Positions 117-19,562 of a DNA stretch of 27,113 nt are shown here, piece by piece. The stretch's first letter is position 1; each line of letters opens with the position of its first letter. The DNA is from a virus, in the IMG/VR virus record IMGVR_UViG_3300028883_000119, positions 1 to 27,113 of that record. One strand, written 5' to 3'. A model generated the notes under the pieces. It worked only from the letters and a program-made list of their open reading frames with translations, had not been told where the DNA came from and did not search any database. The translations under genes and the position numbers were made by a program.

Positions 117-755
117 ATGGCCAAACGATCCGCCAAGAAACCAGCGGCCAAACGATCCGCCAAGAAACCAGCGGCCAAACGATCCGCCAAGAAACCAGCG
201 GCCAAACGTGCGCCGGCCAAACGGGCCACGGCCAAGCGAAAGCCGGTCGCGAGAAAGCCGCGCAAACAGAAACCGCCGCAGCCGCAGCTGCCAGCCGGAT
301 CGGATCCGCTGATCGAGGATCTGCTATTGCAGCTGGTGCGCGGATGCAGCGCGGACCAGGCGGAGCGGCTGGCGATCAAACGGCTGGACGTGGACCCGCA
401 GGTGGCCGGCCTGCTGGTGACCGAGGCACGGCGACGGCTGACGATCGCCGCGGACTATTCCCGGGACGAGGTGCTGGCCACCGGAATAGAACGGCTGAAC
501 GCAATCTATCAGGCGGGGCTGGACCAGGACGATCTGCGGACCAGCCTGGCGGCGCAGAAGGAGCTGCACAAGCTATTTGCCCTGTATCACCCGCTGATGC
601 CCGGCGCTGCAAGTCCGCCAGGCGAGCAGATCGAGGAGCTGGAGGCGGTTCGCGCACACCTCGAGGCGCTCGACCTGGGAAACGAAGTTACCGCAACCGA
701 GGAGCTGGCGCGCCGTGCCGCAGCTGAAATCATTACCCACCGCGCAACGAAATAA
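117..755 (+). CDS. Putative terminase small subunit with histone-H1-like basic N-terminus
   Basis: This 212-residue protein probably recognises phage DNA and hands it to the large terminase encoded immediately downstream; the role is inferred mainly from position. Residues 1-60 are almost entirely Ala, Lys, Arg and Pro, built from three identical AKRSAKKPA units and degenerate copies, like the lysine-rich tail of histone H1 or chlamydial Hc2. Residues from about 63 to the end are predicted helical and acidic/basic mixed, with a possible helix-turn-helix around residues 65-105 and a helical, possibly oligomerising segment near 115-150. The ATG at 117 is preferred over the ATG at 113 because only this frame gives a sensible protein and continues to the terminase overlap. 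The 3' end overlaps the next gene by 41 bases. It could instead be a separate DNA-binding protein if TerS lies elsewhere. Confidence 0.7.
   Translation: MAKRSAKKPAAKRSAKKPAAKRSAKKPAAKRAPAKRATAKRKPVARKPRKQKPPQPQLPAGSDPLIEDLLLQLVRGCSADQAERLAIKRLDVDPQVAGLLVTEARRRLTIAADYSRDEVLATGIERLNAIYQAGLDQDDLRTSLAAQKELHKLFALYHPLMPGAASPPGEQIEELEAVRAHLEALDLGNEVTATEELARRAAAEIITHRATK
120..200 (+). repeat. 27-bp perfect tandem repeat, three copies, in frame in the terminase small subunit gene
   Basis: Three identical 27-base units occupy 120-146, 147-173 and 174-200, followed by degenerate partial copies to about 235. Each unit encodes nine residues (AKRSAKKPA), so copy number could change by slippage without breaking the reading frame. 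Confidence 0.95.
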
Positions 756-2802
756 GCCGGGCAGCTACCTCCGCCACCGGCAGAAGATGGCAGCCCGCGC
801 GCAAACGCAGTCCGCGCTGGGCCGCGAGCTGGGGCGTATGCCGGCGGTAAAGGATCCACGGCGCAAGCTGGCCGGGATGCGGTCCCTGCGGACATTCTGC
901 GAAAGCTATTTCCCCGAGGTATTCTATCTGCCCTGGTCCGCGGACCACCTGGCGGTGATCGAAACCCTGGAGCGGGTGATTATCGAGGGGGGGCTATTTG
1001 CCCTGGCGATGCCGAGGGCCTCGGGCAAATCGGCGCTACTTAAAGCGGCGGTGATCTGGGCGGTGCTGCGGGGATCCCGCCAATACTGCTGTTTGATTGC
1101 CGCGGAAGCCGGGCACGCGGAGCGCCTGCTGGAGGGAATCAAAGCCGAGCTGGAAACAAACGATCGCCTGGCCGAGGACTGGCCGGAGGCGATCTGGCCG
1201 ATCCGCGAGCTGGAGGGCATCCACAACCGGGCCGCCGGCCAGCGCTTTCTCGGCGCCTCCACCCATATCGGAATCAAAGCGGATGAGCTGGAGTTTCCGA
1301 CAATCCCCGGCAGCCTGGCCAGCGGCGCGGTAATCCACGTTGCCGGAATTCTTGGCAGCGTGCGCGGAATGCAACATTCACGGCCCGATGGGCGGACGGT
1401 GCGGCCCGACCTGGTGCTGGTGGACGATCCGCAGACCGACGAATCCGCCCGCAGCCCCGCGCAGAATGACCGGCGGGAGCAGATCGTGGCCGCGGCGATC
1501 CTCGGCCTGGCCGGGCCAGGTGTGAAGATCTCCGGAATTATGCTGGGAACGGTGATTGCCCGGGACGATATGGTGGACCGCCTGCTGGACCGCAGCAAGC
1601 ACCCAGAATGGCAGGGCACCCGCACGAAGATGATCTACAGTTTCCCCGCGCGGGAGGATCTCTGGGGGCAATATGCAGAGATCCGCGCCGAAGGGCTGCG
1701 ATCCGGCCGCGGCCTGGCCGATGCCACGCGATTCTACCGCCGCAACCAAAAAGCAATGGACGAAGGCGCGGAGGTGGCCTGGCCGCAGCGCTACGACCAG
1801 GACGAAATATCGGCAATTCAGCACGCGCTGAACCTGAAGCTACGGGACGAGCGGGCCTTTTTTTCGGAGTATCAAAACGACCCGCAGGACGATCGGCCGG
1901 AAGCCACGCAGCTATCAGCCGCGGAGATCGCCAGCAAGCAAAACGGCCTGAAGCGCGGCCAGGTGCCGGCCGGGGCCGAGGTGCTAACGCTGTTTGCGGA
2001 CCTTCACGATAACCTGATCTATTGGGCCGCCTGCGCGTGGCGCCGGGACTTTACCGGATGGCTGCTGGATTACGGGACTTACCCCAAGCAGTCCGTCCCG
2101 TATTTCCTGCTGCGCGACGCCAAGCGGACGCTGAAACAAGCAGCCGGCCGCGGCGGCCGGGAATCCGCGATTTGGCAGGGCCTGGAGGCGATCTGCGGCG
2201 AGCTGCTCGAGCGGAACTGGACGCGCGAGGATGGCGGCGCGGCGCGGATCGAGCTGGCAATGGTCGATGGCAACTGGCAAACGGACCTGGTGCGCGAATT
2301 CTGCCACCGGACGAAATGGCGGGGGCAGCTGCTGCCAAGCCACGGCCGCTACTACGGGGCCAGCAGCCGGCCGCTAACCGAGGCAAAGCCGGAACCGGGA
2401 GAAAAGCTGGGGCTGCAATGGCGGCAGCGGATCACCAAGACGCGGCCGCGGACGCGCTACCTGATTTTTGATAGCAACTGGTGGAAATCGTTTTTACAGG
2501 GCCGCCTGGCGGTCCCGTATCCGGATCCCGGGAATTTCTCTTTGCCAGCCGGCCACCACCGCCTGCTGGCCGATCACCTCACCTCGGAATTTTTCGTGTT
2601 GACCGAGGGCCGCGGGCGAACGGTGGAGGAGTGGAAGCTGCGGCCCGGCTGGGATAACCATTGGCTGGACTGCCTGGTGGGCAACTGTGTGGCGGCGAGC
2701 CTCCGCGGATGCCAGCTGCCGGGACTTGGCGAGGTGAAACGGGTAAGCAGCCGCCGGCGGGTGAGCCTGAGCGAACTGCAACGGCAACGGCGAGGGCAAT
2801 GA
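715..2802 (+). CDS. Phage terminase large subunit (ATPase plus nuclease)
   Basis: TerL is the motor that pumps DNA into the prohead and cuts it. The 695-residue protein has a Walker A-like motif at residues 100-107 (PRASGKSA) and a Walker B motif LVLVDDP with its acidic pair at 237-238. The C-terminal half has the spaced acidic residues expected of the RNase H-like nuclease: LFADLHD near 425, AMVDGNW near 518, and HWLDCLVG near 650. The last motif resembles the end of GpA-type terminases. The GTG at 715 is chosen because a GAGGAG sequence lies 10 bases upstream at 699-704; the next in-frame ATG at 787 has no such site. It overlaps the TerS gene by 41 bases and its TGA overlaps the next ATG (ATGA at 2799), so the three are translationally coupled. 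Confidence 0.9.
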   Translation: MPQLKSLPTAQRNKPGSYLRHRQKMAARAQTQSALGRELGRMPAVKDPRRKLAGMRSLRTFCESYFPEVFYLPWSADHLAVIETLERVIIEGGLFALAMPRASGKSALLKAAVIWAVLRGSRQYCCLIAAEAGHAERLLEGIKAELETNDRLAEDWPEAIWPIRELEGIHNRAAGQRFLGASTHIGIKADELEFPTIPGSLASGAVIHVAGILGSVRGMQHSRPDGRTVRPDLVLVDDPQTDESARSPAQNDRREQIVAAAILGLAGPGVKISGIMLGTVIARDDMVDRLLDRSKHPEWQGTRTKMIYSFPAREDLWGQYAEIRAEGLRSGRGLADATRFYRRNQKAMDEGAEVAWPQRYDQDEISAIQHALNLKLRDERAFFSEYQNDPQDDRPEATQLSAAEIASKQNGLKRGQVPAGAEVLTLFADLHDNLIYWAACAWRRDFTGWLLDYGTYPKQSVPYFLLRDAKRTLKQAAGRGGRESAIWQGLEAICGELLERNWTREDGGAARIELAMVDGNWQTDLVREFCHRTKWRGQLLPSHGRYYGASSRPLTEAKPEPGEKLGLQWRQRITKTRPRTRYLIFDSNWWKSFLQGRLAVPYPDPGNFSLPAGHHRLLADHLTSEFFVLTEGRGRTVEEWKLRPGWDNHWLDCLVGNCVAASLRGCQLPGLGEVKRVSSRRRVSLSELQRQRRGQ

Positions 2803-2996
2803 TCGAAACAATGGCAACGGACCGCGATCAGCAGCAAGAGGAAAACGGGCTGCGCTGCCGCAGCTGCGGCTGCCGCCACCTGCCTGTCCTCGAGACGCGC
2901 AAACGGCCAGGCGGGCGGATCGTGCGCCGCCGGATCTGCCGCCACTGTGGCCGGCGGATGCTGACGTATGAGCGGGAAGCGGGGACGCCGGAATGA
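2799..2996 (+). CDS. Small zinc-ribbon protein, NrdR-like N-terminal motif
   Basis: This 65-residue protein contains two paired cysteine knuckles, CRSCGC near residue 20 and CRHCGRR near residue 48, with an arginine-rich linker ending in RRRICRHCGRRMLTYE. The arrangement closely follows the zinc ribbon at the N-terminus of the NrdR repressor, whose consensus has CxxC, then a basic stretch, then CxxCGxRFTTYE. The ATP-cone domain of NrdR is absent, so it is not NrdR itself. Ogr/Delta-like phage activators are another possible relative. The start is the ATG that overlaps the terminase stop codon, and its own stop overlaps the next ATG at 2993. It sits exactly between the terminase and the glycan-modification cassette. 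DNA or RNA binding is likely but the target is unknown. Confidence 0.75.
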   Translation: MIETMATDRDQQQEENGLRCRSCGCRHLPVLETRKRPGGRIVRRRICRHCGRRMLTYEREAGTPE

Positions 2997-3775
2997 ACAA
3001 GTACACCCATTCGGTACTGATAACCCACCGCAATCGCCACCAGCAGCTGCGGCTGTGTATATGGTCCCTAGTGGAGGCGGCAAAGGCCTCCGGACATTGG
3101 AACTGGGAGCTGGTGATTGTGGACAACGGATCGGACTATGGCCTGAAACAGCTGGCGTGGATGCCGCAGCGTATGCGCGTGATCGAGGATCTCCGGCCGA
3201 TGCCGATCTTCAACAAGCCGGCGCTTTGGAACGTGGCGATCGAGGCGGCCCGGGGCGAGGTGCTGACCTTTCTTGACGCGGACGCGATTCTTGGGCCGCG
3301 GTTTCTCGAGGGAGCGGAGCTGCTGCGGGATCCGGACCTGGTGCGGCTGTGCTATCGGGTGATGTACCTCGAGCAGGACTGGCTGGAGCGGCTGGGGCCG
3401 GAGCGTGGCCGGCTGGAGCTGGTCCGCGATCTATTTGCCCGATACTACAGCGGGGACTTCCGCCGGGCCTATGAGGCCTATGGCGGACACAACAACAACG
3501 AGTGGGCCGCCGGCGGCGCGGTATGGGGCAATTCTCAATTCTCGATCACGCGGGAGAACCTCCGCGACTGCCGGCCCGATGAGCGGTTTGCTGGGCGTGG
3601 GTTTGAGGATCTGGACTTCCTGCGGCAGATCGAGCGGTCCTGGGGCGACCGCTACCGCGGCCGCCTGGTAGAGGATGCGGATCGCAATATGTTCCACCTC
3701 GAGCATGAGCGGACCGCGGACTGGCACCAGCCGGAGCTGGTGGCGCGAAACCTGCAGCTATACCGGGAGGGCTGA
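2993..3775 (+). CDS. GT-A fold (family 2-like) glycosyltransferase
   Basis: The 260-residue protein has the layout of a nucleotide-sugar-dependent glycosyltransferase. The N-terminal strand-turn motif ITHRNR is at residues 10-15, a VDNGSD motif is at 43-48, and the metal-binding DxD motif (LDADA) is at 94-98. A GRGFEDLDF motif near residue 200 resembles the GxGxEDxDF acceptor/catalytic motif of galactosyltransferase-type GT-A enzymes, and an HLEHERT segment follows near the C-terminus. No transmembrane segment is seen, so the enzyme should be cytoplasmic and act on a lipid-linked, protein or nucleotide acceptor. Its ATG overlaps the preceding TGA. It is the first of six cassette genes. The sugar and the acceptor cannot be told from sequence. 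Confidence 0.87.
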   Translation: MNKYTHSVLITHRNRHQQLRLCIWSLVEAAKASGHWNWELVIVDNGSDYGLKQLAWMPQRMRVIEDLRPMPIFNKPALWNVAIEAARGEVLTFLDADAILGPRFLEGAELLRDPDLVRLCYRVMYLEQDWLERLGPERGRLELVRDLFARYYSGDFRRAYEAYGGHNNNEWAAGGAVWGNSQFSITRENLRDCRPDERFAGRGFEDLDFLRQIERSWGDRYRGRLVEDADRNMFHLEHERTADWHQPELVARNLQLYREG

Positions 3776-3778
3776 TCG

Positions 3779-4318
3779 GTGCGAGTGTTTGTGACGGGGA
3801 CGGGCCGCTGCGGATCGGTGACCTGTGCGAAGGCCTGCGGGCATATCAGCAACTACACGGCCGCGCATGAAACCCATTGGGGACGCTGCCAGGTGCCGGA
3901 GGTGGTCCACCCCGATCGACATATTGAGGTGGCCCCGCAGCTGGTGCTGTGGATCCCCTGGCTGCGCAAACTGTATCCGGATTCTCACTGGGTGCACCTA
4001 ATCCGCGGCGATCAGCTGGGCTGTTGCGAAAGCCTGGCCACCCGCTGCCGGGCATCGATGGAATGCTTCTCAATCCAGTGGTTCGGCCTCCGCGGCGATC
4101 CGGACGCGGCGGCCAGCTGCTTTTATGATGCGATCAACGATTTATGCGCGGCCCTGATGCCGACAGACCGGACGGAGATCCTGCTGGAGGATCCCGAGCC
4201 TGGCTGGCGGCAATTCTGGCAGGCGATCGGCGCCGAGGGGAACCTGGAGGCGGCCCTGGCCACCTGGCGGACAAAACACAACGCGCGCAGCCCCGGGGAA
4301 CGGTGCGATGCTCGGTAG
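3779..4318 (+). CDS. Sulfotransferase-like protein (short)
   Basis: The 179-residue protein starts at GTG 3779, six bases after a GGGAGGG ribosome binding site at 3766-3772. Residues 3-13 (VFVTGTGRCGS) match the 5'-phosphosulfate-binding loop of PAPS-dependent sulfotransferases, and HWVHLIRGDQLGCCESL at about 70-86 matches the 3'-phosphate-binding motif with Arg76 and Ser85. The protein is shorter than typical sulfotransferases (about 250 residues or more), mainly after the second motif, so activity is less certain than for the second sulfotransferase downstream. It is predicted to transfer sulfate from PAPS to a hydroxyl on a glycan or small molecule. Its 3' end overlaps the next gene by 11 bases, indicating coupled translation. 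Confidence 0.75.
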   Translation: MRVFVTGTGRCGSVTCAKACGHISNYTAAHETHWGRCQVPEVVHPDRHIEVAPQLVLWIPWLRKLYPDSHWVHLIRGDQLGCCESLATRCRASMECFSIQWFGLRGDPDAAASCFYDAINDLCAALMPTDRTEILLEDPEPGWRQFWQAIGAEGNLEAALATWRTKHNARSPGERCDAR

Positions 4319-5132
4319 GTACATTGCACGGCCGCTGCTTTCGGTCCTGATGCCCGCACTGAGCAGCCGGCGGCACCTTTGGCAAAGGCTGATCGGTGAG
4401 CTGCGGCGGCAGGCGGCGGCGATTCCCTGGCGGGTGGAGATCCTGACCGAGGAAGATGACGGCCAGCGACCGAGCGGAGCGAAACGCAACGCGCTGCTTT
4501 CCCGCGCGCGGGGCCACTATGTGGTCCAGGTTGATGATGACGACTGGGTTTCGGACGAATATCTGGCCGCACTGTGCGAGGTGATCTATTGCAGCCGGCC
4601 GGACGTGGTGGGGCTGCGGGCCTGGCGAACCGGCGGCAACGCGGACCGAATCCACGAATTCGCGCTAAATCACGGCGACAAACAGCAGCTGGGATGGATC
4701 GCCAACCCCGCGGGGATCCAGGTTCGGCTGATGGCCTTTCAGGCGAACCACCTTTGCGCGTGGCGCCGCGAGCTGGCCACCGCCTGCCGGTTTCCGGACC
4801 ACCTCGGATATAACGACGATTTGTTTTGGTATCAGCCGCTGATCGCCTCGGGCCTGGCCAAACGCGGTGAGGTGATCGAGCGGGTGCTGTACTATTACCG
4901 CTACGATCCCCAGGGATCGGCCAACCAGTCCGCGGAATCGAGGGCGAGGACGCGCCGCTGGGCCGCCGGCGGGGTGGAACACTTCTGGCACGCGGGGCGG
5001 ATCTGCCGCGCGGAGGTGGGCCGCGACGATAACCGGGACGCGGATCCGATCGTGGTGATCGATCCGGAAGGCCGGCGGCACCTGGTCCGCCGCGATGAGT
5101 GCCGGCAGATCTGCACGGTAAACATGAGGTGA
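4308..5132 (+). CDS. GT2-like glycosyltransferase
   Basis: This 274-residue protein begins with a short strand LSVLMPAL typical of family 2 glycosyltransferases and carries an acidic metal-binding cluster VQVDDDDWVSDEYL with DDDD at residues 76-79. A segment resembling the acceptor-binding region, HLGYNDDLFWYQPL near residue 165, contains a possible catalytic Asp pair. The basic SGAKRNALL segment at 56-64 matches the nucleotide-contacting helix that precedes the DxD in this family. No membrane segment is seen. The ATG at 4308 lies inside the 3' end of the sulfotransferase gene. It is the second of three glycosyltransferase-like genes in the cassette, and all three differ in sequence, suggesting stepwise assembly of one glycan rather than simple duplication. 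Confidence 0.83.
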   Translation: MLGRYIARPLLSVLMPALSSRRHLWQRLIGELRRQAAAIPWRVEILTEEDDGQRPSGAKRNALLSRARGHYVVQVDDDDWVSDEYLAALCEVIYCSRPDVVGLRAWRTGGNADRIHEFALNHGDKQQLGWIANPAGIQVRLMAFQANHLCAWRRELATACRFPDHLGYNDDLFWYQPLIASGLAKRGEVIERVLYYYRYDPQGSANQSAESRARTRRWAAGGVEHFWHAGRICRAEVGRDDNRDADPIVVIDPEGRRHLVRRDECRQICTVNMR

Positions 5133-5136
5133 TTTT

Positions 5137-5895
5137 GTGGACGAGTCCCCGATCCTGATTGCAGGCCCGCCGCGGTCTGGGAATACCTGGATGCAGCACG
5201 CGCTGGATCTCCACCCGCTGCTGGCGATTCGGGGGCACTTTCCGCGACTTACGGGCGACGATCTGCAGAACTGGCTGGAAAAGCTGCTGGCGGCCGGAGA
5301 GCTGGCCGCCCGCTGGAATGAAAGCCTGGCCTACCAGGTGCCGCATTTTGCCGGGGCCAGCGAGCAGACCACGCTGGAGGCCTTCCGCGGGATGCTGCGG
5401 CAGCTGTGGATCGGTGACCTCGGCCGGCGGCCGGCCAGGTGGGGCGCCTCGATCAAGTGGGAGCCGCCCGCAATGTGGAAACGGCTATGGCCGGCGGCAC
5501 GGTTTGTGATCTGCCTGCGCGATCCGTTTAAGGCGTTAGAGTCCGCTACCAACAATTTCACCTCCCCTGTAGGCCCGCGGGCATTTCTGGAGCGGTGGGT
5601 GGCGGCGGCGAAGTTTGGCCTGGCCGGGGAGCGGGCAACCTGCTGGCTGACGGACCAGGTGGCCGGCTGGACGCGGCAGGAACGGCGGGAGGCGATGGCG
5701 ATCCTGCTGGAGTGGCTGGAACTGCCCGAGGATGCCGCGGTGCTGAAGTTTGCCGCGGACTATCCGCGAATTCACGGCCTTAAACCGCGGGCGGAGTATC
5801 AATTCACGGTCACCGCGCAGCAGCGGGCGAACTACCTCGAGCGTGTGCCGGAGCTGCGGGCGACTATGGCGCGGCTGATGTATGCGGTGGACTGA
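5137..5895 (+). CDS. PAPS-dependent sulfotransferase
   Basis: The 252-residue protein has both cofactor motifs in good form. The 5'-phosphosulfate loop is at residues 8-18 (IAGPPRSGNTW), and the 3'-phosphate site is FVICLRDPFKALESA at about 123-137 with Arg128 and Ser136. Length is normal for bacterial and cytosolic sulfotransferases, and there is no signal peptide or anchor. It would sulfate a hydroxyl or amine on a sugar, protein or small molecule in the cytoplasm using host PAPS. The start is GTG 5137 with a GAGGTGA site just upstream. The gene follows the GT2-like gene with a four-base gap and precedes the radical SAM gene, whose ribosome binding site is a strong GAGGAGG. Confidence 0.87.
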   Translation: MDESPILIAGPPRSGNTWMQHALDLHPLLAIRGHFPRLTGDDLQNWLEKLLAAGELAARWNESLAYQVPHFAGASEQTTLEAFRGMLRQLWIGDLGRRPARWGASIKWEPPAMWKRLWPAARFVICLRDPFKALESATNNFTSPVGPRAFLERWVAAAKFGLAGERATCWLTDQVAGWTRQERREAMAILLEWLELPEDAAVLKFAADYPRIHGLKPRAEYQFTVTAQQRANYLERVPELRATMARLMYAVD

Positions 5896-5913
5896 GCAGA
5901 GGAGGACCTGGGG

Positions 5914-6762
5914 ATGATTGATACCGCGCAACAATGGTGCCAGCAAATCGACGTGACCAACCTTTGCCCCCGCCGCTGCAGCAACTGCACGCGAATGCTT
6001 ACCCACGCCAGAAACGGCTGGGCAATGGATCCGGACACCTTCCGCCAGGCGGTGGCGGCCCTGGCGGACTTCCCCGAGCAATCCCCGCCGGATCTTTACA
6101 ATCGGCATAAGGTGATCGGGCTGATCGGCGGAGAGCCGCTGCTGCATCCGCAATTCCCCAATCTGTGCCGGATCTTTGCCGAGCTGGTCCCCGATCGTGC
6201 GCGGCGCGGCCTGTGGACCTCTGCCGATCTGGATGGCCACCCCTACCAGCAGCTGATCGGGGAAACCTTCGGATATCTGAACCACAACCCGCACCAGCAG
6301 CAGGTGGTCCACCAGCCGATCCTGGTGGCGGTCCGCGAGCTGGTGGAGGATCCGGCCGATATGTGGCGGCTGATCGAGGACTGCTGGCTGCAGAAGATGT
6401 GGAGCGGGGCGATCACGCCAAAGGGCTACTTCTACTGCGAGGTGGCGGCTGCTTTCGATGCGATCTTTGACGGCCCCGGCGGCCTGCCGATCGAGCCGGG
6501 CTGCTGGGCGCGCCCGCTGGACGATCACCGCGAGCTGATCGAGCGCTGGTGTATACGGTGCGGCGCCTGTGTGCCGCTGGAAGGCCGGGACGACTGGCAG
6601 CAACGGGACGATATCTCACCGGGCAACCTCGAGGAGCTGAAGCGGCTGCGATCGCCGCGGGTCCGCCGCGGGGAGGTTGTCCTGTTCGACGCGGCCGGCT
6701 GGTGCGCCGAGGCCAACCGGCCTGGCTGGAATCCGCAGCGGTATCTAAGGGGCGAGCGATGA
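5914..6762 (+). CDS. Radical SAM protein with C-terminal cysteine cluster
   Basis: Residues 18-25 (CPRRCSNC) form the canonical CxxxCxxC motif that holds the SAM-binding 4Fe-4S cluster, and residues 72-75 are the GGEP motif that contacts the SAM amino group. The C-terminal third has further cysteines, including FYCEV near residue 173 and WCIRCGACVPL near 210, which could bind an auxiliary cluster as in SPASM or Twitch domains. At 282 residues it is compact for this group. The reaction cannot be assigned: sugar epimerisation or dehydration, peptide modification and nucleotide modification are all known for relatives. Placement between a sulfotransferase and a glycosyltransferase favours a sugar or a glycosylated acceptor. 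The start has a GAGGAGG site at about 5898-5905, and the TGA overlaps the next ATG. Confidence 0.87.
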   Translation: MIDTAQQWCQQIDVTNLCPRRCSNCTRMLTHARNGWAMDPDTFRQAVAALADFPEQSPPDLYNRHKVIGLIGGEPLLHPQFPNLCRIFAELVPDRARRGLWTSADLDGHPYQQLIGETFGYLNHNPHQQQVVHQPILVAVRELVEDPADMWRLIEDCWLQKMWSGAITPKGYFYCEVAAAFDAIFDGPGGLPIEPGCWARPLDDHRELIERWCIRCGACVPLEGRDDWQQRDDISPGNLEELKRLRSPRVRRGEVVLFDAAGWCAEANRPGWNPQRYLRGER

Positions 6763-7523
6763 GCGGAATAGATCTGGCGGTCGTGGTGTGTGTGGAGTTT
6801 GACGATCTCCTGGCGCTGAGCCTGCCGCGGCTGCTGCGGCATTGTGGCCATGTGCGGATCGTGACCAGCCCCGCCGACAAACCGACGCAGGAGCTGATCC
6901 GCGGATACGGGCTGGCCGGCTATCCTGTTTCCTGTTTGCAGACCGGGGCCTTTTATGAGCGGGGCGCGGCATTCAACAAAGGGGCGGCGATCCTCCGCTG
7001 CTTGGAATCCGTGGAGCTGCACGGGTGGATTGCCCTGGCCGATGCCGATACCCTGTGGCCGGCGGAGATCTGCTGGGAGTTTCTCGAGATCGGCAACCTT
7101 TACACGCCACCGCGGCGGATCGTGCACCCCGCCGAGGACTTCAACGAGGCCACCGACTGGGCCGCCTGGCCGCGCTGCGAAGATCGAGAGTTTGCCGGCT
7201 ATACCCAGATTTTCCACGCGGGCGATCCTCGGTTTCGCCAGGCGGCGAAGCTGTACCCCGACAACTGGCGACACGCGGGCGGCGCCGATTCTTTGTTTCA
7301 GGATCGCTGGCCTGTAGCCCGCAAGCTCCGGCCACCCTTCGAGGTGTTACACTTGGGGACACCCTGGGCAAACTGGCACGGACGCTGGGAGGCCCGCCTG
7401 GACGGCCGGGAGATCCCCGAGGCGGCCGCGCGCTGCTGGGCGCAGCAGGAAATGAGGCGGGCCAGGCGGTCTTACGGTTTCGCGCTGGAGCTGCTCGAGG
7501 ATACCGATCCGCCAGCGAACTGA
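6759..7523 (+). CDS. GT-A fold glycosyltransferase-like protein
   Basis: This 254-residue protein begins at the ATG overlapping the radical SAM stop codon. An N-terminal strand (AVVVCVEF) is followed by FNKGAA at residues 72-77, a typical segment preceding the metal site in GT-A enzymes, and by LADADTLW with the DxD at 95-97. A C-terminal HLGTPWANWHGRW segment with two histidines and tryptophans is similar to the metal-coordinating tail of such enzymes. No membrane segment is visible. It is the last gene of the cassette and is followed by a 322-base non-coding gap. The donor sugar and acceptor are unknown. It is distinct in sequence from the two upstream glycosyltransferase-like proteins. Confidence 0.75.
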   Translation: MSGIDLAVVVCVEFDDLLALSLPRLLRHCGHVRIVTSPADKPTQELIRGYGLAGYPVSCLQTGAFYERGAAFNKGAAILRCLESVELHGWIALADADTLWPAEICWEFLEIGNLYTPPRRIVHPAEDFNEATDWAAWPRCEDREFAGYTQIFHAGDPRFRQAAKLYPDNWRHAGGADSLFQDRWPVARKLRPPFEVLHLGTPWANWHGRWEARLDGREIPEAAARCWAQQEMRRARRSYGFALELLEDTDPPAN

Positions 7524-7845
7524 TCTATTTGATCTGCCGCGGTAGCCCCGATCCGCGAGATCTGCCACCTCGCAGTCCTGCCTGCCCGCTGCTGGCCGCC
7601 GGCAGCCTCGGGCGAACTGGTGACCCGATCCGGCGAAAGTCCTCCAGAGCGGCCCCTGGGCAGCCCCTGGCGCGCTGTGCCGCACTAGATGTGGGGATAT
7701 TTGCGCCGCTGGCTGTGCAAAAGGCCCAATCGGCCTGGATCGGCGGCCCGGCTAGCGTATAACCGAGGGCAACTGGCCACCGGCGGACGCGCCGGGCCTC
7801 CTAACTACTGGCCGTGCGGGGCCGCACCTCCGCGCGGCCTTTTCT
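7524..7845 (+). other. Non-coding gap between the glycan cassette and the head genes
   Basis: I find no convincing gene in these 322 bases; open frames here are short or are tails of frames shadowing the upstream gene. It contains one GCACTAG heptamer at 7682-7688, the same word that clusters near the attachment region, and a TATAAC hexamer at 7758-7763 that could be a -10 element, although no good -35 is placed 16-18 bases upstream. The gap ends in a terminator-like hairpin directly before the next ATG. It could be the right-hand junction of an inserted cassette and the place where transcription of the head genes restarts. Confidence 0.5.
7820..7843 (+). terminator. Terminator-like hairpin before the head-gene block
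   Basis: A GGCCGC/GCGGCC stem (7820-7825 with 7834-7839) with an eight-base loop is followed directly by TTTTCT. The stem is short and the U-tract modest. It sits within seven bases of the next start codon, so it may act as an attenuator of read-through from the cassette or in the leader of the downstream gene. Confidence 0.5.
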
Positions 7846-8043
7846 ATGTCCGAAAGCCTGGAAAGCGACATCGCCACCGCGGCGGTTTCTCCGAAGTCCG
7901 CCAGCGTGGACGGTAATTCGGTCAATCAGCACCCGCTGGGCGATCAGATCGAGGCGGACAAATACCTGGCCGCCAAGCGAAACGCCACGGCCAAGCGGGT
8001 GGGCATCCGCTTTGCCAAGCTGAAACCCCCAGGCACGATCTAA
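7846..8043 (+). CDS. Small conserved-type head protein upstream of portal (gpW position)
   Basis: The 65-residue protein has no membrane segment or known catalytic motif. It has a central VDGNSVNQHPLGDQIEADKYLAAK segment of about 24 residues and ends in a basic RFAKLKPPGTI tail. It lies directly between the packaging genes and the lambda-type portal, the place occupied in lambda by the head-completion protein gpW, which has a similar size. Function as a head-tail connector component is inferred from size and position only. No clear Shine-Dalgarno sequence precedes the ATG, because the terminator-like hairpin and its T-tract lie there. The coding potential is supported by the close fit to the portal gene (13-base gap) and the ordered acidic/basic composition. 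Confidence 0.65.
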   Translation: MSESLESDIATAAVSPKSASVDGNSVNQHPLGDQIEADKYLAAKRNATAKRVGIRFAKLKPPGTI

Positions 8044-8056
8044 GGGGGACCGGCTG

Positions 8057-9586
8057 ATGGCGCAGCGATCGAGCGGATCGGCGGCGAAGGCCGCGGCGGC
8101 ACGGCCGCGGCGGAGCCTGGCGGCGATGCGAGCCGACGCGCGGACCGCCTCGGCCAGCGTGCGGCGGACCTGGCTGGCGGGAAAGTACGACGCCGCGCAG
8201 ACCGCCGACGAAAACCGCCGCCACTGGGCCAACGCGGACAGCCTGGCCGCCAACGCGGCCGGCAGCCCCTCGGTCCGCCAGATCCTCCGCAACCGCGCCC
8301 GCTACGAGGTGGCGAACAACAGCTATGCGCAGGGCATCCTGCAAACGCTGGCCAACGATCTGATTTCCACCGGGCCGCGGCTGCAGATGCTCACCGCCTC
8401 CGCCGAGGGTAACCGGCGGATCGAGCTGGCCTGGCAGAAGTGGGCGGACGCGATCCACCTGGCGGCCAAGCTGCGGACCGCCAAGCAGGCCAAAGTCCGC
8501 GACGGCGAGGCCTTCGCCCTGCTGGTGACCAATCCCCGGCTGATCGGCCCGGCCAAGCTGGACCTACGGCTGATCGAGGCGGACCAGGTGGCCAGCCCCC
8601 AGCCCCGCTGGGACAAACCCAACGAAACGGACGGGATTCACTTTGACGAGTGGGGAAACCCCGCGGTTTATCTGGTGCTGAAGCAGCACCCCGGGGATAC
8701 CGCGGTTTCCTACCAGGCGGGCGCGGACGAGATCCCCGCCCGCCGGATGCTCCACTGGTTTCGGGTGGATCGGCCTGGCCAATACCGCGGTCTGCCGGAA
8801 CTGATGCCGGCGCTGCCGCTGTTTGCCGAGCTGCGGCGGTATATGCGCGCGGTGGTGGCGGCCGCGGAAACCGCCGCCGACTTTGCCGCGGTCCTGCAGA
8901 CGCAGGCCCCGCAATTCGAGGACGAGGACAGCGACGCGCCGAAGGTGTTGGACGCGATCGAACTGGAGCCTAGGCTGGCCACGGTCCTGCCGGACGGCTA
9001 CCAGCTGGGCCAGATCAAGGCCGAGCAACCGGCCACCACCTTCTCCGAGTTTGTTCGCGCTCTGCTTACCGAGATCGCCCGCTGCCTGAATGTGCCCTAC
9101 AACGTGGCCGCCGGCGACAGCAGCAAACACAATTACAGCAGCGGCCGGCTGGATCACCAGACCTACCACAAGGCCCTGAGCGTGGAGCGGCATGATTGCC
9201 AGGTGGTGATCCTCGAGCGGCTGCTGGATGCCTGGCTGCGGGAATACCTGGCCGAGCTATCCGGTATTTCCCCCGCCGATGTGGACCTGGCCGATTATCC
9301 GCACGAGTGGCGCTGGGACGGTTTCGAGCATGTGGACCCTACCAAAGAGGAAAACGCGCGATTGACCCGGCTGGCAGCCGGAATGACCTCTTACCCGAGC
9401 GAGTTTGCCAAGGACGGGGCCGACTGGGAAGCGGAGTTTGCCAAGCAGGCCCGGGCGCTGGGCGTAACGGTGCCCCAATACCAGGCGATTCTGCGGCAGA
9501 AGCTGCTGGGGACCGGCGGAGCGGCGACGGGTGACAACCAACTAGCGGACCAAGAGGTGGAAGATGAGCCGGCACGCGACCAATAG
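8057..9586 (+). CDS. Lambda-type portal protein
   Basis: The portal forms the dodecameric ring at one vertex through which DNA enters and to which the tail attaches. The 509-residue protein is of the expected size for lambda gpB-like portals. The N-terminal region has RNRARYEVANNSYAQGILQTL near residues 80-100, followed by GPRLQM, which corresponds to the conserved start of the family in which a helical pair precedes an 'IGxGxxLQ' turn. RMLHWFRVDRPGQYRGLPELMPAL around 228-251 is the family's signature 'hxfxxxRxgQxRGxxxLxxxL' region. The C-terminus is acidic and disordered. A GGGGGA ribosome binding site precedes the ATG. The 3' end overlaps the capsid fusion gene by 23 bases. Confidence 0.92.
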   Translation: MAQRSSGSAAKAAAARPRRSLAAMRADARTASASVRRTWLAGKYDAAQTADENRRHWANADSLAANAAGSPSVRQILRNRARYEVANNSYAQGILQTLANDLISTGPRLQMLTASAEGNRRIELAWQKWADAIHLAAKLRTAKQAKVRDGEAFALLVTNPRLIGPAKLDLRLIEADQVASPQPRWDKPNETDGIHFDEWGNPAVYLVLKQHPGDTAVSYQAGADEIPARRMLHWFRVDRPGQYRGLPELMPALPLFAELRRYMRAVVAAAETAADFAAVLQTQAPQFEDEDSDAPKVLDAIELEPRLATVLPDGYQLGQIKAEQPATTFSEFVRALLTEIARCLNVPYNVAAGDSSKHNYSSGRLDHQTYHKALSVERHDCQVVILERLLDAWLREYLAELSGISPADVDLADYPHEWRWDGFEHVDPTKEENARLTRLAAGMTSYPSEFAKDGADWEAEFAKQARALGVTVPQYQAILRQKLLGTGGAATGDNQLADQEVEDEPARDQ

Positions 9587-11735
9587 ATACCCGCGGGAGA
9601 TCCGAGCAGCCGGGGCCACGGTGCGGACCAGGCCCTGGCCGCTGCCCGGCGAGCGGCTGCCGGCGGATCTCACCCTGGCAGCCGGCCAGCGGATCGAGCT
9701 GGCGGCCGCCGAGGCCACCGAGGACGGCAAGCCGAAGCTGCGGACCTTCACTGGCACGGCCTACACCGGCGCGGAAATGGTCCCCGAGGGCTTCTATCGG
9801 CCGGTGATGGTGGACCTGGCCGGCCTGGCGGTGCCGCGGCAGACGGTGCCGATCCTCCGCGGTCACGACCCCGAGCAGGTCCTGGGGCACACCCAGGAGA
9901 TCAAGGTGGACGGCCGGGTGGAGATCTCGGGCGTATTCAGCGGCGCCACCCGCGCCGCGGAGGTGGTGGAACTGGCGGCGGGCGGTTTTCCCTGGCAGCT
10001 GAGTATCGGCGCCAGGATCGAAAAGCTGATCCGCCTGGACGATGGCGAGAAGGCGGACGTAAACGGCCGGCAGGTGACCGGGCCGCTGCTGATCGCCAGG
10101 AAAACGACGTTGCGGGAAGTTTCTTTCGTGCCGATCGGCGCGGACGGGGCCACAAGCGCAAAGATCGCCGCGCAGGCGGCAAACTCTATTTCCGAGGAGG
10201 GAGCGATGGATTTTCAGAAGTGGCTGAAGGCCAAGGGCTGGGACCCTGAGAGCCTCTCGGACGATCAGCGGGCGGTCCTCGAGGCCGCCTGGAAGTCCGA
10301 AACGAACCAGGGCAGCAAGGACGAAGGCGGCGAGCCGAAACCGCAGAAGATCGCCGCGGCGGCCGGAAACGGCCAGCCGGACGATGAGAAGCCGGTGGAC
10401 CTGGTGGCGCAGGCCCGCGCGGAGCTGGCCGCGGAATCCAAGCGGGTGGCCGCGATCCGCAAGATCACCGCGGGCCATGACGAGCTGCAGGCAAAGGCGA
10501 TCGAGGAGGGCTGGACCAGCGAACGGACCGAGCTGGAGATTCTTCGCGCCGAGCGTGGCCGCGGCCCGGCGATCCACACCGGCGGCGAGGACCAGCAGCC
10601 GGCGGTCCTGGAGGCGGCCCTGGCCCGATCGGCTGGCGTGGATCAAACGATCCTCGAGGCCGACTATAGCGAGCAGACACTGGAGGCCGCGGACGGCAGG
10701 CAGTACCGGGCCTATGGCCTCGGGGAGCTGCTGCACGCGGCGATCGGTGCCGCCGGCGGCTATGCCCGCCCGGGCCGGATCACGGACGAAACGATCCGCA
10801 GCGCATTCGACGCGGAGCGGACGTTGCGGGCCAGCGGGTCCTCCACCTTCAGCCTCTCGGGGATCCTCGGCGCGGTGGCCAACAAGTCCCTGCGGGCCGG
10901 CTATCAGAGCGTAGACAACGTGGCCGCGCGGATCGCCAGGATCGGCAGCGTTTCCAATTTCCAAACGCACACCCGATACCTCCTCACCGCCAAGGGCGAG
11001 GTGGAGAAGGTGGGCGCGGACGGTGAACTGAAACACGGCAAGCTTACGGAGGAAAACTACACGATTTCGGCCGACACCTACGGCCGACTCATCGGCCTCA
11101 GCCGCACGGCGCTCGTTAACGACGATATGGACGCGCTATCGCAGATCCCGCGGGACCTGGGGCGTAAGGCGGTGCTGGCGCTGCAAAAGGCCCTGTTTAC
11201 CGCGATTCTGGGCAATGCGTCCAGTTTCTTCGGCAGCGGGAACAGCAACTATATCAGCGGGGCGAGCACCACGCTGCAGATCTCCAGCCTGACCACCGCG
11301 GAGCAGACCTTTATGGATCAGACCGACGCGGACGGCGATCCGGTGGGGATCACCCCCGCGATCCTGCTGGTCCCGACCGCGCTGAAGGTGGCCGCGCAGG
11401 AGATTTACGCGGCGGTGCGGGTGAACGAGTACACCTCGCAAAACAAGAAATCGCCCGACATCAACCCGCACGCGGGCAAGTGGCGGGTGGAGTGCAGCCC
11501 GTACCTCAGCAACAGCAACCTTACCGGATACAGCAGCACCGCCTGGTATCTGCTGGCCGATCCGGCGGACGTGGCGGCCTTCGAGGTGGCATTCCTGAAC
11601 GGGATGCAGGAGCCGCAGGTGGCAACCTCCGATCTCGATTTCGATCAGCTGGGGATTCAGCATCGGGTGGTTTATGACTTTGGTGTGGCCCTGGCCGATC
11701 ACCGCGGCGGAGTAATGAGCAAAGGCGCGGCCTAA
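9564..11735 (+). CDS. Prohead protease - scaffold - major capsid fusion protein
   Basis: One 723-residue frame joins functions that are often separate genes. Residues about 60-200 form an HK97-type prohead protease domain, with candidate catalytic residues His101 in ILRGHDPEQVLGH and Ser147 in WQLSIGA, and a LREVSFVPIGADG segment after it. Residues 215 to about 335 are charged and helical, like a scaffold or delta domain. From about residue 345 to the end is the major capsid domain, with GLSRTALVNDDMDAL and a C-terminal TSDLDFDQLGIQHRVVYDFGVALAD resembling Mu gpT/HK97-fold subunits. An internal ATG at 10206 with a strong ribosome binding site would give a 509-residue protein without the protease, supplying excess capsid subunits. 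The gene overlaps portal by 23 bases and is followed by a strong hairpin. Confidence 0.9.
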   Translation: MSRHATNRYPREIRAAGATVRTRPWPLPGERLPADLTLAAGQRIELAAAEATEDGKPKLRTFTGTAYTGAEMVPEGFYRPVMVDLAGLAVPRQTVPILRGHDPEQVLGHTQEIKVDGRVEISGVFSGATRAAEVVELAAGGFPWQLSIGARIEKLIRLDDGEKADVNGRQVTGPLLIARKTTLREVSFVPIGADGATSAKIAAQAANSISEEGAMDFQKWLKAKGWDPESLSDDQRAVLEAAWKSETNQGSKDEGGEPKPQKIAAAAGNGQPDDEKPVDLVAQARAELAAESKRVAAIRKITAGHDELQAKAIEEGWTSERTELEILRAERGRGPAIHTGGEDQQPAVLEAALARSAGVDQTILEADYSEQTLEAADGRQYRAYGLGELLHAAIGAAGGYARPGRITDETIRSAFDAERTLRASGSSTFSLSGILGAVANKSLRAGYQSVDNVAARIARIGSVSNFQTHTRYLLTAKGEVEKVGADGELKHGKLTEENYTISADTYGRLIGLSRTALVNDDMDALSQIPRDLGRKAVLALQKALFTAILGNASSFFGSGNSNYISGASTTLQISSLTTAEQTFMDQTDADGDPVGITPAILLVPTALKVAAQEIYAAVRVNEYTSQNKKSPDINPHAGKWRVECSPYLSNSNLTGYSSTAWYLLADPADVAAFEVAFLNGMQEPQVATSDLDFDQLGIQHRVVYDFGVALADHRGGVMSKGAA
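10194..10208 (+). promoter_or_regulatory. Internal ribosome binding site and start codon inside the protease/capsid gene
   Basis: The sequence GAGGAGGGAG at 10194-10203 lies three to five bases before an in-frame ATG at 10206-10208 (residue 215 of the fusion). This matches the anti-Shine-Dalgarno better than the gene's own start and lies exactly at the protease/scaffold junction, so a separate scaffold-capsid product is likely. Confidence 0.75.
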
Positions 11736-11752
11736 CGGGGCCTGAGCCTGGC

Positions 11753-11794
11753 GGCAGTCCGCCGGGTGCCCACGGCCCGGCGGCTGCTGCCTTT
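11753..11794 (+). terminator. Strong hairpin after the capsid gene (partial terminator or mRNA stabiliser)
   Basis: An eight-base perfect stem CCGCCGGG/CCCGGCGG (11759-11766 with 11776-11783) is extended by an outer GGCAG/CTGCC stem (11753-11757 with 11787-11791) and followed by TTTC. The T-tract is short, so incomplete termination is more likely than full stop. Confidence 0.65.
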
Positions 11795-11845
11795 CGATCG
11801 TGGGCAAGAACTGCAACCAAACCAAGCGAGCGCGAGGACTGAAAC

Positions 11846-12196
11846 ATGAGCGTTTACTACAACAGCCGCGGCGATACCGTGGACTACACCGCGAGCACCG
11901 CCAAGACGGCCGGGGACGTGGTGGTTCAGAATAACTTGGTTGGCATTGTCACCCAGGACATTGCGGCCAACCAGAAGGGCAGCCTGCGGATCGAGGGCGT
12001 GGCCGAGGTGCCCAAGAGCACCGGCGGATCCACGGCGATCGCCGCAGGGAAGCTGGTTTACTGGGACGCCACCTACAGCGTGGCCACCGAAACCAGCAGC
12101 GGCAACACGGCGATGGGCGTAACGGTCCTGGCGGCCACGGACGCCGCGGCGGTGGTTTACGTCAAGCTGCTGCCGGGTATCAAGGCGGCCCTGTAA
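11846..12196 (+). CDS. DUF2190-like capsid decoration (cement) protein
   Basis: The 116-residue protein is predicted to be mostly beta strand. Its pattern fits the DUF2190 family, small proteins encoded directly after the major capsid and thought to decorate or stabilise the shell. Recognisable elements are the opening NSRGDTVDYTAS segment, VVVQNNLVGIVTQDIAANQKGSLRIEGVAEVPK with a central 'G(L)V.V..D.a.g..g.v...Gv..vpk' rhythm, then VYWDATYSVATETSSGNTAMGV, and a final YVKLLPG. The assignment is family-pattern based and consistent with position. It should be made in large amounts, and it lies between two hairpins (before at 11753-11794, after at 12221-12241), which may set its transcript level separately from its neighbours. 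Confidence 0.85.
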   Translation: MSVYYNSRGDTVDYTASTAKTAGDVVVQNNLVGIVTQDIAANQKGSLRIEGVAEVPKSTGGSTAIAAGKLVYWDATYSVATETSSGNTAMGVTVLAATDAAAVVYVKLLPGIKAAL

Positions 12197-12220
12197 CCGC
12201 CCGAGGATCTCCGCGGGCCG

Positions 12221-12241
12221 GCCGGGCAGGGATCGCCCGGC
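12221..12241 (+). promoter_or_regulatory. Perfect hairpin after the decoration protein gene
   Basis: GCCGGGC at 12221-12227 pairs with GCCCGGC at 12235-12241 across a seven-base loop. No T-tract follows, so it is more likely an mRNA-stabilising or attenuating element than a full terminator. Confidence 0.6.
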
Positions 12242-12283
12242 GGCCCGGGTGGACGCGCGGCCCCGGCGGGCCGGGAGGGGATC

Positions 12284-12661
12284 GTGGCGGACCTGTTGCA
12301 AACCGGATCGCAATGGCTGGCCGGCCAGCTGAAAAGCCACGCGGGCCGATCGGTGATCTATTCGCGCGGATCCTCCACGGTCACGATCACCGCCACCAAG
12401 GGCCAGGCGGACCTGGAGCGGCTGGGGGTGGATCCGGCCACGGTGGAGGATGAAACCGCGGATTGGATCCTGACCGCCGCGGACCTGATCCTGGCCGGCG
12501 CGGTGGCGGAGCCGGCGCTGGGCGATCGGATCACGGAAACGATCGGCAGCACCACGGCAATCTACCAGGTGGTATCGATCGGCGGCGCCAGGGCCTGGCG
12601 CTACACGGACGGCAATCGTTACCAGCTGCGGGTGACCACGCAGCTGATCTCCGAAAGTTGA
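12284..12661 (+). CDS. Putative head-tail joining protein
   Basis: The 125-residue protein lies where head-closure or connector proteins (lambda gpFII or equivalent) are found, between capsid decoration and tail-completion genes. The sequence has a mixed alpha/beta pattern: an N-terminal helix (LLQTGSQWLAGQLKSH), a beta strand pair SVIYSRGSSTVTITATKG, a helix-like acidic middle, and a terminal strand region GDRITETIGSTTAIYQVVSIG and RYQLRVTTQLI. GDRI(x)5GxxxxYxVxxI near residues 83-103 is a pattern common in gpFII-like and ATP-binding-sugar-transporter-like phage head-tail joiners. GTG 12284 is chosen because GGAGGGG lies at 12274-12280. No catalytic motif is present. Confidence 0.68.
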   Translation: MADLLQTGSQWLAGQLKSHAGRSVIYSRGSSTVTITATKGQADLERLGVDPATVEDETADWILTAADLILAGAVAEPALGDRITETIGSTTAIYQVVSIGGARAWRYTDGNRYQLRVTTQLISES

Positions 12662-12665
12662 ATCG

Positions 12666-13124
12666 ATGGCGGATCCCGGCGTGACGATCGCGGAGGCGGT
12701 GAAGGCCGCGCTGGAGGCCGGCAGCTACAGCCAGGCCTTCGACGTGACGCGGACCTACCTGCCGCGGCTATCGCTGGCCTCGGGCGATCTGGACGCGCTG
12801 CAGGTCCTGGTGGTCCCCGGGCCTGCCGAGGGCGCCTGGGCCAACCGCAGCCAGCAGGAACACCTGCACCAGGTGGACGTGGCGGTCTGCAAGAAAGTGG
12901 CCGAGTACACCAACGCCACCCTGGATCCGCTGCTGGGGCTGCTCAGGGAGCTGGCGGACGACCTGGTGGGCGAGCGCCTGGGGCTGGAGGTGCAGCCGGA
13001 CGATCGGGCGATCTGCACCGGCTGGCAGTACCTGACCGGCGCCGAGGCCGGCTATGCGCCCGACCTGCTGGAAAAGCTGACCTTTGTGGCGGTCTGCCGC
13101 CTGACCTATAGGCTGATCCGATGA
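12666..13124 (+). CDS. Putative tail completion / tail terminator protein
   Basis: The 152-residue protein has an N-terminal helix, VTIAEAVKAALEAGSYSQAFDVTRTYLPRL, then a strand LDALQVLVVPG, a polar segment ending in HLHQVDVAVCKK, a helix with LDPLLGLLRELADDLVGERL, and a final strand FVAVCRLTYRLIR. This order (helix, strand, strand, long helix, final strand) matches the fold class of phage tail terminators and minor tail proteins in the gpU/gp17 position. No catalytic motif is visible. Its stop codon overlaps the next gene by four bases (ATGA at 13121), linking it to the HK97 gp10-like gene. Role in capping the tail tube is inferred from position and predicted fold. Confidence 0.65.
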   Translation: MADPGVTIAEAVKAALEAGSYSQAFDVTRTYLPRLSLASGDLDALQVLVVPGPAEGAWANRSQQEHLHQVDVAVCKKVAEYTNATLDPLLGLLRELADDLVGERLGLEVQPDDRAICTGWQYLTGAEAGYAPDLLEKLTFVAVCRLTYRLIR

Positions 13125-13504
13125 TTGCCAGGGCGAGAGGCCGATTGAATACAACCCAGCTGCGGCGGAAGGCCGAGCGGGGAAAATACCGCGGCCTCGG
13201 GCACGCGGCCGGGGCGGTGCGGCTGATCGCCAAGCGATCGATCCGCAAACGCAAGAAAGCGAGCCGGCCGGGGACCCCGCCGAGCACACAGACCAAGCGG
13301 CTGCCGGCGGCGATCCTGTACGCGGTGGAGCCGGACCGGGCGGTGATCGGCCCGGTGGCCTCGATCGTGGGGACCGCCGGCGAGGCCCACGAACACGGCG
13401 GGCGCTACAAGCGCGAAAACTATCCCCAGCGGCCTTTTATGGCGCCTGCCCTGGATAAGGCGCGGCCGCGGCTGCCCGATAACTGGGCGGGCGTGATCCA
13501 CTGA
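13121..13504 (+). CDS. HK97 gp10-like tail completion protein
   Basis: The 127-residue protein is very basic (many Arg and Lys in the first 60 residues). It ends in the segment EHGGRYKRENYPQRPFMAPALDKARPRLPDNW, which matches the conserved end of HK97 gp10-type proteins, where an 'EfGtxxxxarPFLrPAl' motif lies near the C-terminus. The usual N-terminal helical part is replaced by a basic, possibly disordered segment. It belongs to the group of proteins that joins head and tail. It overlaps the preceding gene by four bases and is followed 16 bases later by the GTG start of the tail tube gene. The possible link between its basic N-terminus and DNA is inference. Confidence 0.75.
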   Translation: MIARARGRLNTTQLRRKAERGKYRGLGHAAGAVRLIAKRSIRKRKKASRPGTPPSTQTKRLPAAILYAVEPDRAVIGPVASIVGTAGEAHEHGGRYKRENYPQRPFMAPALDKARPRLPDNWAGVIH

Positions 13505-19550: not shown

Positions 19551-19562
19551 AAGGGGAAAAGC

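What the first reader, a model, noticed from the sequence alone, without database searches (positions are those of the whole stretch)
2799..7523. Six-gene glycosyltransferase/sulfotransferase/radical SAM cassette inserted between terminase and portal
Three GT-A-like glycosyltransferases, two sulfotransferase-like proteins and one radical SAM protein are read as one tight operon inside the packaging/head gene block, which in most phages is compact. Many of the junctions overlap or nearly abut, so the genes move and act as a unit. The enzymes suggest synthesis of a sulfated, possibly unusual sugar. Two readings: conversion of the host surface during lysogeny, or late expression with the virion genes and modification of virion proteins or of the host envelope at the end of infection. 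Placement in the late operon favours the second. I do not know a described phage system with this exact gene set.
Basis: partly seen in the sequence, partly recalled or inferred. Interest (0 to 1): 0.85.

Follow-up and report, generated by a model that had tools for sequence, protein, structure and literature searches.

The report
Phage sulfated-sugar cassette among head genes
An uncultured phage, probably of planctomycete-type bacteria, carries six sugar-building and sugar-decorating enzyme genes between its DNA-packaging and head genes; related cassettes with interchangeable decorating enzymes recur among virion genes of many uncultured phages, suggesting that these viruses coat their own particles with unusual, in some cases sulfated, sugars.

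Summary
The six genes are real: GT, sulfotransferase (ST), GT, ST, radical SAM (rSAM), GT at 2993-7523, junctions -11 to +18 bp. Motifs are intact, and the sixth is confirmed as GT-A by a 95.7-pLDDT model. Most relatives with this terminase and portal have under 0.8 kb between them (empty site); others carry unrelated cargo there. Four further contigs carry related cassettes in this slot with the shared genes in one order (GTa, [STa], GTb, [STb], rSAM, GTc). Methyltransferases, FkbM or a second rSAM are swapped in, and one phage keeps rSAM downstream of its tail genes. The rSAM family is found in 112 IMG/VR contigs, not in cultured phages by tblastn, and in few bacterial genomes searched. It sits beside virion genes in at least four unrelated head modules. 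Its nearest folds are sugar/aminocyclitol rSAM dehydrogenases (SpeY, BtrN). All six proteins look soluble; no Gtr-type membrane partner is present. Best explanation: a late-expressed, modular pathway decorating the phage's own virion proteins with an oxidised, sulfated glycan. Acceptor and product are not shown. A terminator-like hairpin separates the cassette from the head genes. Known kind: mycobacteriophage virion glycosylation. New: rSAM and sulfation chemistry, modularity, breadth.

The parts
715..2802 (+). terminase large subunit (GpA nuclease type), left flank
   Evidence: PF20454 2.9e-23, phrog_38 1.1e-36; 43-52% identical relatives over most of the length in PVC-bacterial MAGs and virus contigs
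2799..2996 (+). 65-aa zinc-ribbon protein, host of the insertion site rather than cassette member
   Evidence: PF22811 8e-8; present in empty-site phage L025 at 52% and in cassette phages upstream (window, L057) or downstream (L142, L062) of the cassette
2993..3775 (+). GTa, GT2-type glycosyltransferase
   Evidence: PF00535 3.9e-11; invariant DAD 95-97 and FED (204-206) in 4 sequences
3779..4318 (+). STa, PAPS-type sulfotransferase-like
   Evidence: Sulfotransfer_3 E 0.006, below cut-off; invariant TGRCG loop and R76...S85 3'-phosphate motif in 5 sequences
4308..5132 (+). GTb, GT2-type glycosyltransferase
   Evidence: PF00535 5.7e-6, phrog_14775 9e-24; invariant DDDD 76-79; relative in mycobacteriophage LittleE beside the capsid gene
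5137..5895 (+). STb, PAPS-type sulfotransferase
   Evidence: PF13469 7.6e-9 above cut-off; PPRSGNTW loop and R128...S136 conserved in L211; profile reaches protein-tyrosine sulfotransferases through the PAPS loop, best 7e-4
5914..6762 (+). radical SAM enzyme, probable twitch type
   Evidence: CX3CX2C, GGEP and four further Cys (C157, C175, C213, C216) invariant in 42 sequences; model nearest SpeY Z 10.5 and BtrN Z 9.2
6759..7523 (+). GTc, GT-A glycosyltransferase without Pfam model
   Evidence: AF2 pLDDT 95.7, pTM 0.91; Foldseek hits K4CP chondroitin polymerase, SpsA, SunS; D95 and D97 invariant in 34 sequences
7810..7839 (+). intrinsic-terminator-like hairpin closing the cassette unit
   Evidence: 12 pairs, 10 GC, then TTTTCT; equivalent hairpins before the same gene in L057, L062, L142
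7846..8043 (+). 65-aa conserved pre-portal protein (gpW-like by position)
   Evidence: 30-51% identical ORFs before the portal in more than 20 relatives
8057..9586 (+). portal protein, right flank
   Evidence: PF05136 3e-61, phrog_21
9564..11735 (+). head protease fused to major head protein
   Evidence: PF25209 4.5e-38, phrog_4523 1e-77

Best explanation
A modular glycan pathway that acts on the phage's own particle. It is transcribed late with the terminase. The soluble GT-A enzymes GTa, GTb and GTc build a short glycan from host sugar nucleotides on a cytoplasmic acceptor, most likely a head or tail protein made at the same time. The twitch-type rSAM oxidises a sugar hydroxyl. STa and STb place sulfate from host PAPS. 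Related phages exchange the tailoring genes (sulfo-, methyl-, FkbM), so virion surface chemistry can change while the core is kept, plausibly changing adsorption, binding to the surroundings or particle recognition. Shown: gene set, motifs, folds of GTc and (moderate confidence) rSAM, conserved order, empty sites, recurrent virion-gene location. Inferred: late timing, glycan acceptor, reaction order, sulfated product, benefit.
For: Empty site with the same flanks in many relatives. Same slot and shared-gene order in L057, L063, L142 and L211; the STb motif scan of all IMG/VR hit one contig only, and it carries the rest of the cassette. rSAM+GT pairs beside major head, scaffold, portal or adaptor genes in P22-like, HK97-like, phrog_9953-type and lambda-portal modules, with rSAM lineages changing head module several times. 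rSAM nearest to sugar/aminocyclitol dehydrogenases SpeY and BtrN. No transmembrane enzyme. Among the closest cultured GTb relatives is one directly after the major head gene of phage LittleE in a multi-GT cassette. Published precedent: mycobacteriophage virion glycosylation (PMC11256854).
Against: No acceptor signature was found in capsid, decoration or tail-tube C termini of cassette versus empty phages. Only 39 of 73 rSAM loci have a labelled virion gene within 5 kb, though many of the rest are unannotated or near tail genes. The terminator-like hairpin shows the cassette is not simply co-transcribed with the capsid genes. One chromosomal relative lies in a cell-surface polysaccharide-type locus. 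PAPS supply depends on an unknown host.
Confidence: 0.58

Rival explanations
1. Host-surface modification late in infection or in lysogens: the enzymes alter host envelope glycans to block superinfection or aid release.
For: Phage GT clusters are usually read this way (pelagimyophages PMC7029224; jumbo cyanophages PMC7824862). The strongest bacterial relative of the rSAM lies beside an ABC exporter and GT-like genes. One related phage has an integrase-like gene near the terminase (L063).
Against: No membrane-bound GtrB/GtrA, flippase or polymerase in the cassette and no TM segment; position among virion genes in unrelated head modules rather than next to integration genes.
Confidence: 0.22
2. 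Maturation of a small peptide or secreted glycopeptide (RiPP-like product): rSAM, GT and ST act on a phage-encoded peptide.
For: rSAM fold neighbours include RiPP maturases (SuiB, PqqE, EpeE) and GTc fold neighbours include the peptide S-glycosyltransferases SunS and ThuS.
Against: No convincing precursor ORF in the cassette or in the 322-bp gap; the best rSAM matches are sugar dehydrogenases; no transporter gene.
Confidence: 0.1
3. DNA hypermodification: GTs and STs decorate modified bases to evade host nucleases.
For: Iyer et al. 2013 is cited for GT- and ST-based base modification in phages (PMC10829341).
Against: No hydroxymethylase, thymidylate synthase or replication gene in the cassette; location with head genes; the contig is partial, so partners elsewhere cannot be excluded.
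Confidence: 0.05

Closest known systems
Mycobacteriophage virion glycosylation (Che8, Rita; Freeman et al. 2023, cited in PMC11256854)
   Same: Phage-encoded glycosyltransferases; glycans covalently attached to major capsid proteins. In mycobacteriophage LittleE a GT cassette lies directly between major head protein and head-tail connector and includes a GTb relative.
   Different: No sulfotransferase or rSAM is annotated in the LittleE cassette; different hosts and head modules; virion glycans unproven here.
Gtr-type seroconversion clusters of temperate phages (general knowledge)
   Same: Phage glycosyltransferases used for glycan change.
   Different: Those use GtrA flippase and membrane GtrB near the integrase; the cassette has neither, and sits among virion genes.
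Twitch radical SAM carbohydrate dehydrogenases SpeY and BtrN
   Same: Closest folds (Z 10.5 and 9.2); CX3CX2C plus extra invariant cysteines.
   Different: About 15-18% identity; substrate unknown; part of a phage cassette, not an antibiotic cluster.
Hypervariable glycan and radical SAM gene regions of pelagimyophages (PMC7029224)
   Same: GT genes and radical SAM gene cassettes in a variable region near structural genes.
   Different: Tail-fibre region of myophages; no ST mentioned; GTs interpreted there as host O-chain change.

Membership tests
PAPS-dependent sulfotransferases | 5'-phosphosulfate loop | tested here: met
   STb PPRSGNTW, STa TGRCG, invariant in relatives
PAPS-dependent sulfotransferases | 3'-phosphate-binding R...S motif | tested here: met
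   STb R128...S136; STa R76...S85
PAPS-dependent sulfotransferases | curated Pfam cut-off | tested here: inconclusive
   STb above (36.6 vs 27 bits), STa below (17.3 vs 27)
Radical SAM superfamily | CX3CX2C and GGE motif | tested here: met
   invariant in 42 sequences
Twitch-type radical SAM enzymes | C-terminal auxiliary-cluster cysteines | tested here: met
   C157, C175, C213, C216 invariant
Twitch-type radical SAM enzymes | twitch-domain fold | tested here: inconclusive
   best matches SpeY and BtrN, but residues 162-189 have pLDDT under 50
GT-A glycosyltransferases | GT-A fold and DxD (GTc) | tested here: met
   pLDDT 95.7 model; K4CP and SpsA hits E 3.5e-7 to 1e-6; D95 and D97 invariant
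Phage virion glycosylation systems | phage-encoded GTs among structural genes | tested here: met
   window and relatives
Phage virion glycosylation systems | covalent glycan on virion proteins | not testable with these tools
   needs mass spectrometry; no acceptor signature seen
Gtr-type host seroconversion | membrane GtrA/GtrB partners | tested here: not met
   no TM-type protein among the six
Gtr-type host seroconversion | location next to integrase/attP | tested here: inconclusive
   not seen in this partial contig; an integrase-like gene lies near the terminase in L063

The most novel reading that the evidence does not exclude
A widespread, so far uncultured class of phages assembles sulfated or otherwise tailored glycans, with a radical-SAM-made oxidised sugar, on its own capsid or tail by a cassette whose tailoring enzymes are exchanged between phages, giving viruses of bacteria a swappable sugar coat.
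Probability: 0.35. Interest if true: 0.85.

Novelty: new variant of a known kind. Interest (0 to 1): 0.66.

Why it matters
Glycosylated virions are reported so far mainly for actinobacterial phages (own knowledge and PMC11256854). A modular cassette adding radical-SAM and sulfation chemistry, recurring in unrelated head modules of uncultured phages, would make virion glycans a general and evolvable trait. It would also give clean gene targets for testing what virion glycans do, and sulfated virions would matter for hosts specialised on sulfated polysaccharides, as many planctomycetes are (own knowledge).

Tried and rejected
The single-sequence viral scan for rSAM found nothing; a degenerate motif from the rSAM conserved block worked. 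tblastn of rSAM, STa, STb and GTc (and of relatives L098 rSAM and L057 GTc) in 50,697 cultured-phage records found nothing. Profile-profile comparison of GTc with GTa and of STa with STb was too weak to use; GTc was settled by structure instead. Sequence search of PDB with the rSAM and GTc profiles gave nothing useful. Search for a glycan acceptor in C termini of capsid, decoration and tail-tube proteins was inconclusive. No precursor peptide was evident. In the rSAM tree one row (L094) was read in the wrong frame and is ignored. Full-text literature search found no paper holding phage, sulfotransferase, radical SAM and glycosyltransferase that describes such a system.

Full report
Observation. 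The window is a partial 27,113-base IMG/VR virus contig. Between the terminase large subunit (715-2802) and the portal (8057-9586) lie a 65-aa zinc-ribbon gene (2799-2996), six enzyme genes (2993-7523), a 322-bp non-coding gap, and a 65-aa conserved pre-portal gene (7846-8043). The six genes are spaced +3, -11, +4, +18 and -4 bp. Downstream come a protease-capsid fusion, a head decoration protein, a major tail protein and a tape measure, so the site is inside the virion block.

Identities. GTa and GTb are GT2-type (Pfam above cut-off), with invariant DAD and DDDD motifs in relatives. STb passes the Sulfotransfer_3 cut-off and has both PAPS loops; its loop resembles protein-tyrosine sulfotransferases. 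STa is below the cut-off, but its TGRCG and R...S motifs are invariant in five sequences. The rSAM is below the Pfam cut-off, yet CX3CX2C, GGEP and four further cysteines (157, 175, 213, 216) are invariant in 42 sequences, the pattern of an auxiliary iron-sulfur cluster. Its model (pLDDT 69) is nearest to SpeY (Z 10.5) and BtrN (Z 9.2), radical SAM dehydrogenases of sugars and aminocyclitols, ahead of RiPP maturases; the region 162-189 is poorly modelled. GTc has no Pfam match, but a 34-sequence model at pLDDT 95.7 is a GT-A fold close to chondroitin polymerase, SpsA and SunS.

Empty sites and alternatives. Twenty-six virus contigs and 24 MAG contigs encode terminase relatives; the MAGs are mostly Planctomycetota and Lentisphaerota, which points to the host group. 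In L003, L004, L005, L018, L021, L022, L025, L030-L035 and L038 the portal match starts under 0.8 kb after the terminase match. L025 keeps zinc ribbon and pre-portal gene with no cassette. In L006, L039 and L048 the same gap holds unrelated cargo, read by eye from translations: AbiE-like genes, a serine recombinase, DNA cytosine methyltransferases. The slot is an accessory-gene site.

Parallel cassettes. L057: TerL-Zn-GTa-GT-MT-FkbM-rSAM2-GTb-rSAM-GTc-preportal-portal. L142: TerL-GTa-STa-MT-GTb-MT-rSAM-GTc-Zn-preportal-capsid. L063: TerL-GTa-GT-rSAM-FkbM-rSAM2-GTc-Zn. L211 with L073 (one contig): GTa-STa-MT-GTb-STb-GTc-preportal-portal-capsid, with rSAM after the tail genes. The shared genes keep one order. 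L062 and L055 start inside a cassette (rSAM, GTc, Zn, portal). The zinc-ribbon gene is before the cassette in the window and L057 and after it in L142, L062, L063 and L055, so either the cassette entered the slot more than once or one side was rearranged. Cassette proteins are about as diverged between these phages (mostly 35-58%) as their portals and capsids (mostly 42-55%), which suggests long co-residence rather than recent passengers. A motif scan for STb over all IMG/VR hit a single contig, the one that also carries the other cassette genes.

Breadth. The rSAM family was matched in 112 viral contigs; 4 of 294 Planctomycetota genomes matched and only one strongly, in a chromosomal locus with an ABC exporter. 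Around some 80 distinct rSAM loci, a second GT-like family occurs in 48, GTc relatives in 18 and an NAD-dependent epimerase in 18; the second family has no Pfam match and is called GT-like from its sequence only. In P22-like phages this GT-rSAM pair follows the major head gene and precedes the head-tail adaptor; in HK97-like and phrog_9953-type phages it also follows the major head gene; in the window's group it lies between terminase and portal. 39 of 73 loci have a labelled virion gene within 5 kb; a scan of unlabelled neighbours gave mainly tail, virion and GT families, but only small counts. In a tree of 38 rSAMs head-module labels change 11 times where 4 is the minimum, so the rSAM moved between head modules while staying among virion genes (one misframed row ignored). 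No relative of rSAM, STa, STb or GTc was found in 50,697 cultured-phage records. The nearest cultured GTb relatives include gp15 of mycobacteriophage LittleE, directly after the major head gene in a cassette of four GTs and a kinase.

Transcription. Terminase, zinc ribbon and cassette are chained by overlaps, so they probably form one unit. A terminator-like hairpin (7810-7839, 12 pairs, T-run) ends it; hairpins with T-runs precede the same gene in L057, L062 and L142, and in empty-site L038. The cassette is therefore late by association with the terminase, not by fusion to the capsid genes. Late timing itself is inferred, not measured.

Mechanism. The six proteins look soluble and no Gtr-type partner or lipid-linked export gene is present, so a cytoplasmic acceptor is likelier than an envelope glycan. 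Combined with the location in unrelated head modules, the best-supported reading is decoration of virion proteins. The acceptor was not identified. Host-surface change remains the main rival. The substrate, the reaction order and the sulfated product are inferences.

Comparison. Virion glycosylation by phage GTs is known for mycobacteriophages (PMC11256854); GT and radical SAM cassettes in variable regions are known in pelagimyophages (PMC7029224). I found no paper describing GT, ST and rSAM together in a phage (the library is partial). Hence: new variant of a known kind.

Noticed in passing
window 7524-7845: 322-bp non-coding gap ending in a strong terminator-like hairpin only 6 bases before the pre-portal gene's ATG; similar hairpins at the same place in L057, L062, L142 and empty-site L038.
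   Followed up: partly
L006 12329-15921; L039 8050-11800; L048 10659-14562: Same terminase-portal slot filled with AbiE-like genes and a DNA cytosine methyltransferase, or a serine recombinase and a DNA cytosine methyltransferase (read by eye, not tested against a family library).
   Followed up: no
L050 545-1491: The terminase reading is interrupted by about 0.9 kb, possibly an intron, intein or assembly fault.
   Followed up: no
L212 (NC_042322.1) 8995-13392: Cultured mycobacteriophage LittleE has four glycosyltransferases and a kinase gene between major head protein and head-tail connector; a tractable model for such cassettes.
   Followed up: partly
L101 11425-12327 and 17 other loci: An NAD-dependent sugar epimerase/dehydratase accompanies the GT-rSAM pair in 18 of about 80 loci, suggesting that some cassettes make their own sugar nucleotide.
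   Followed up: no
L210 (G243) 3773-5221: Chromosomal relative of the rSAM (35% identical) beside an ABC exporter and GT-like genes in a Planctomycetota genome; possible cellular relative of the phage family.
   Followed up: partly
window 16875-20300: Virion-region proteins with a BNR-like and a LamG-like (lectin/glucanase) domain, possible glycan-binding tail parts.
   Followed up: no
window 3000-7500: AT skew falls to about zero across the cassette, against 0.12 to 0.25 in the terminase and most head genes, hinting at different origin or amino-acid make-up.
   Followed up: no
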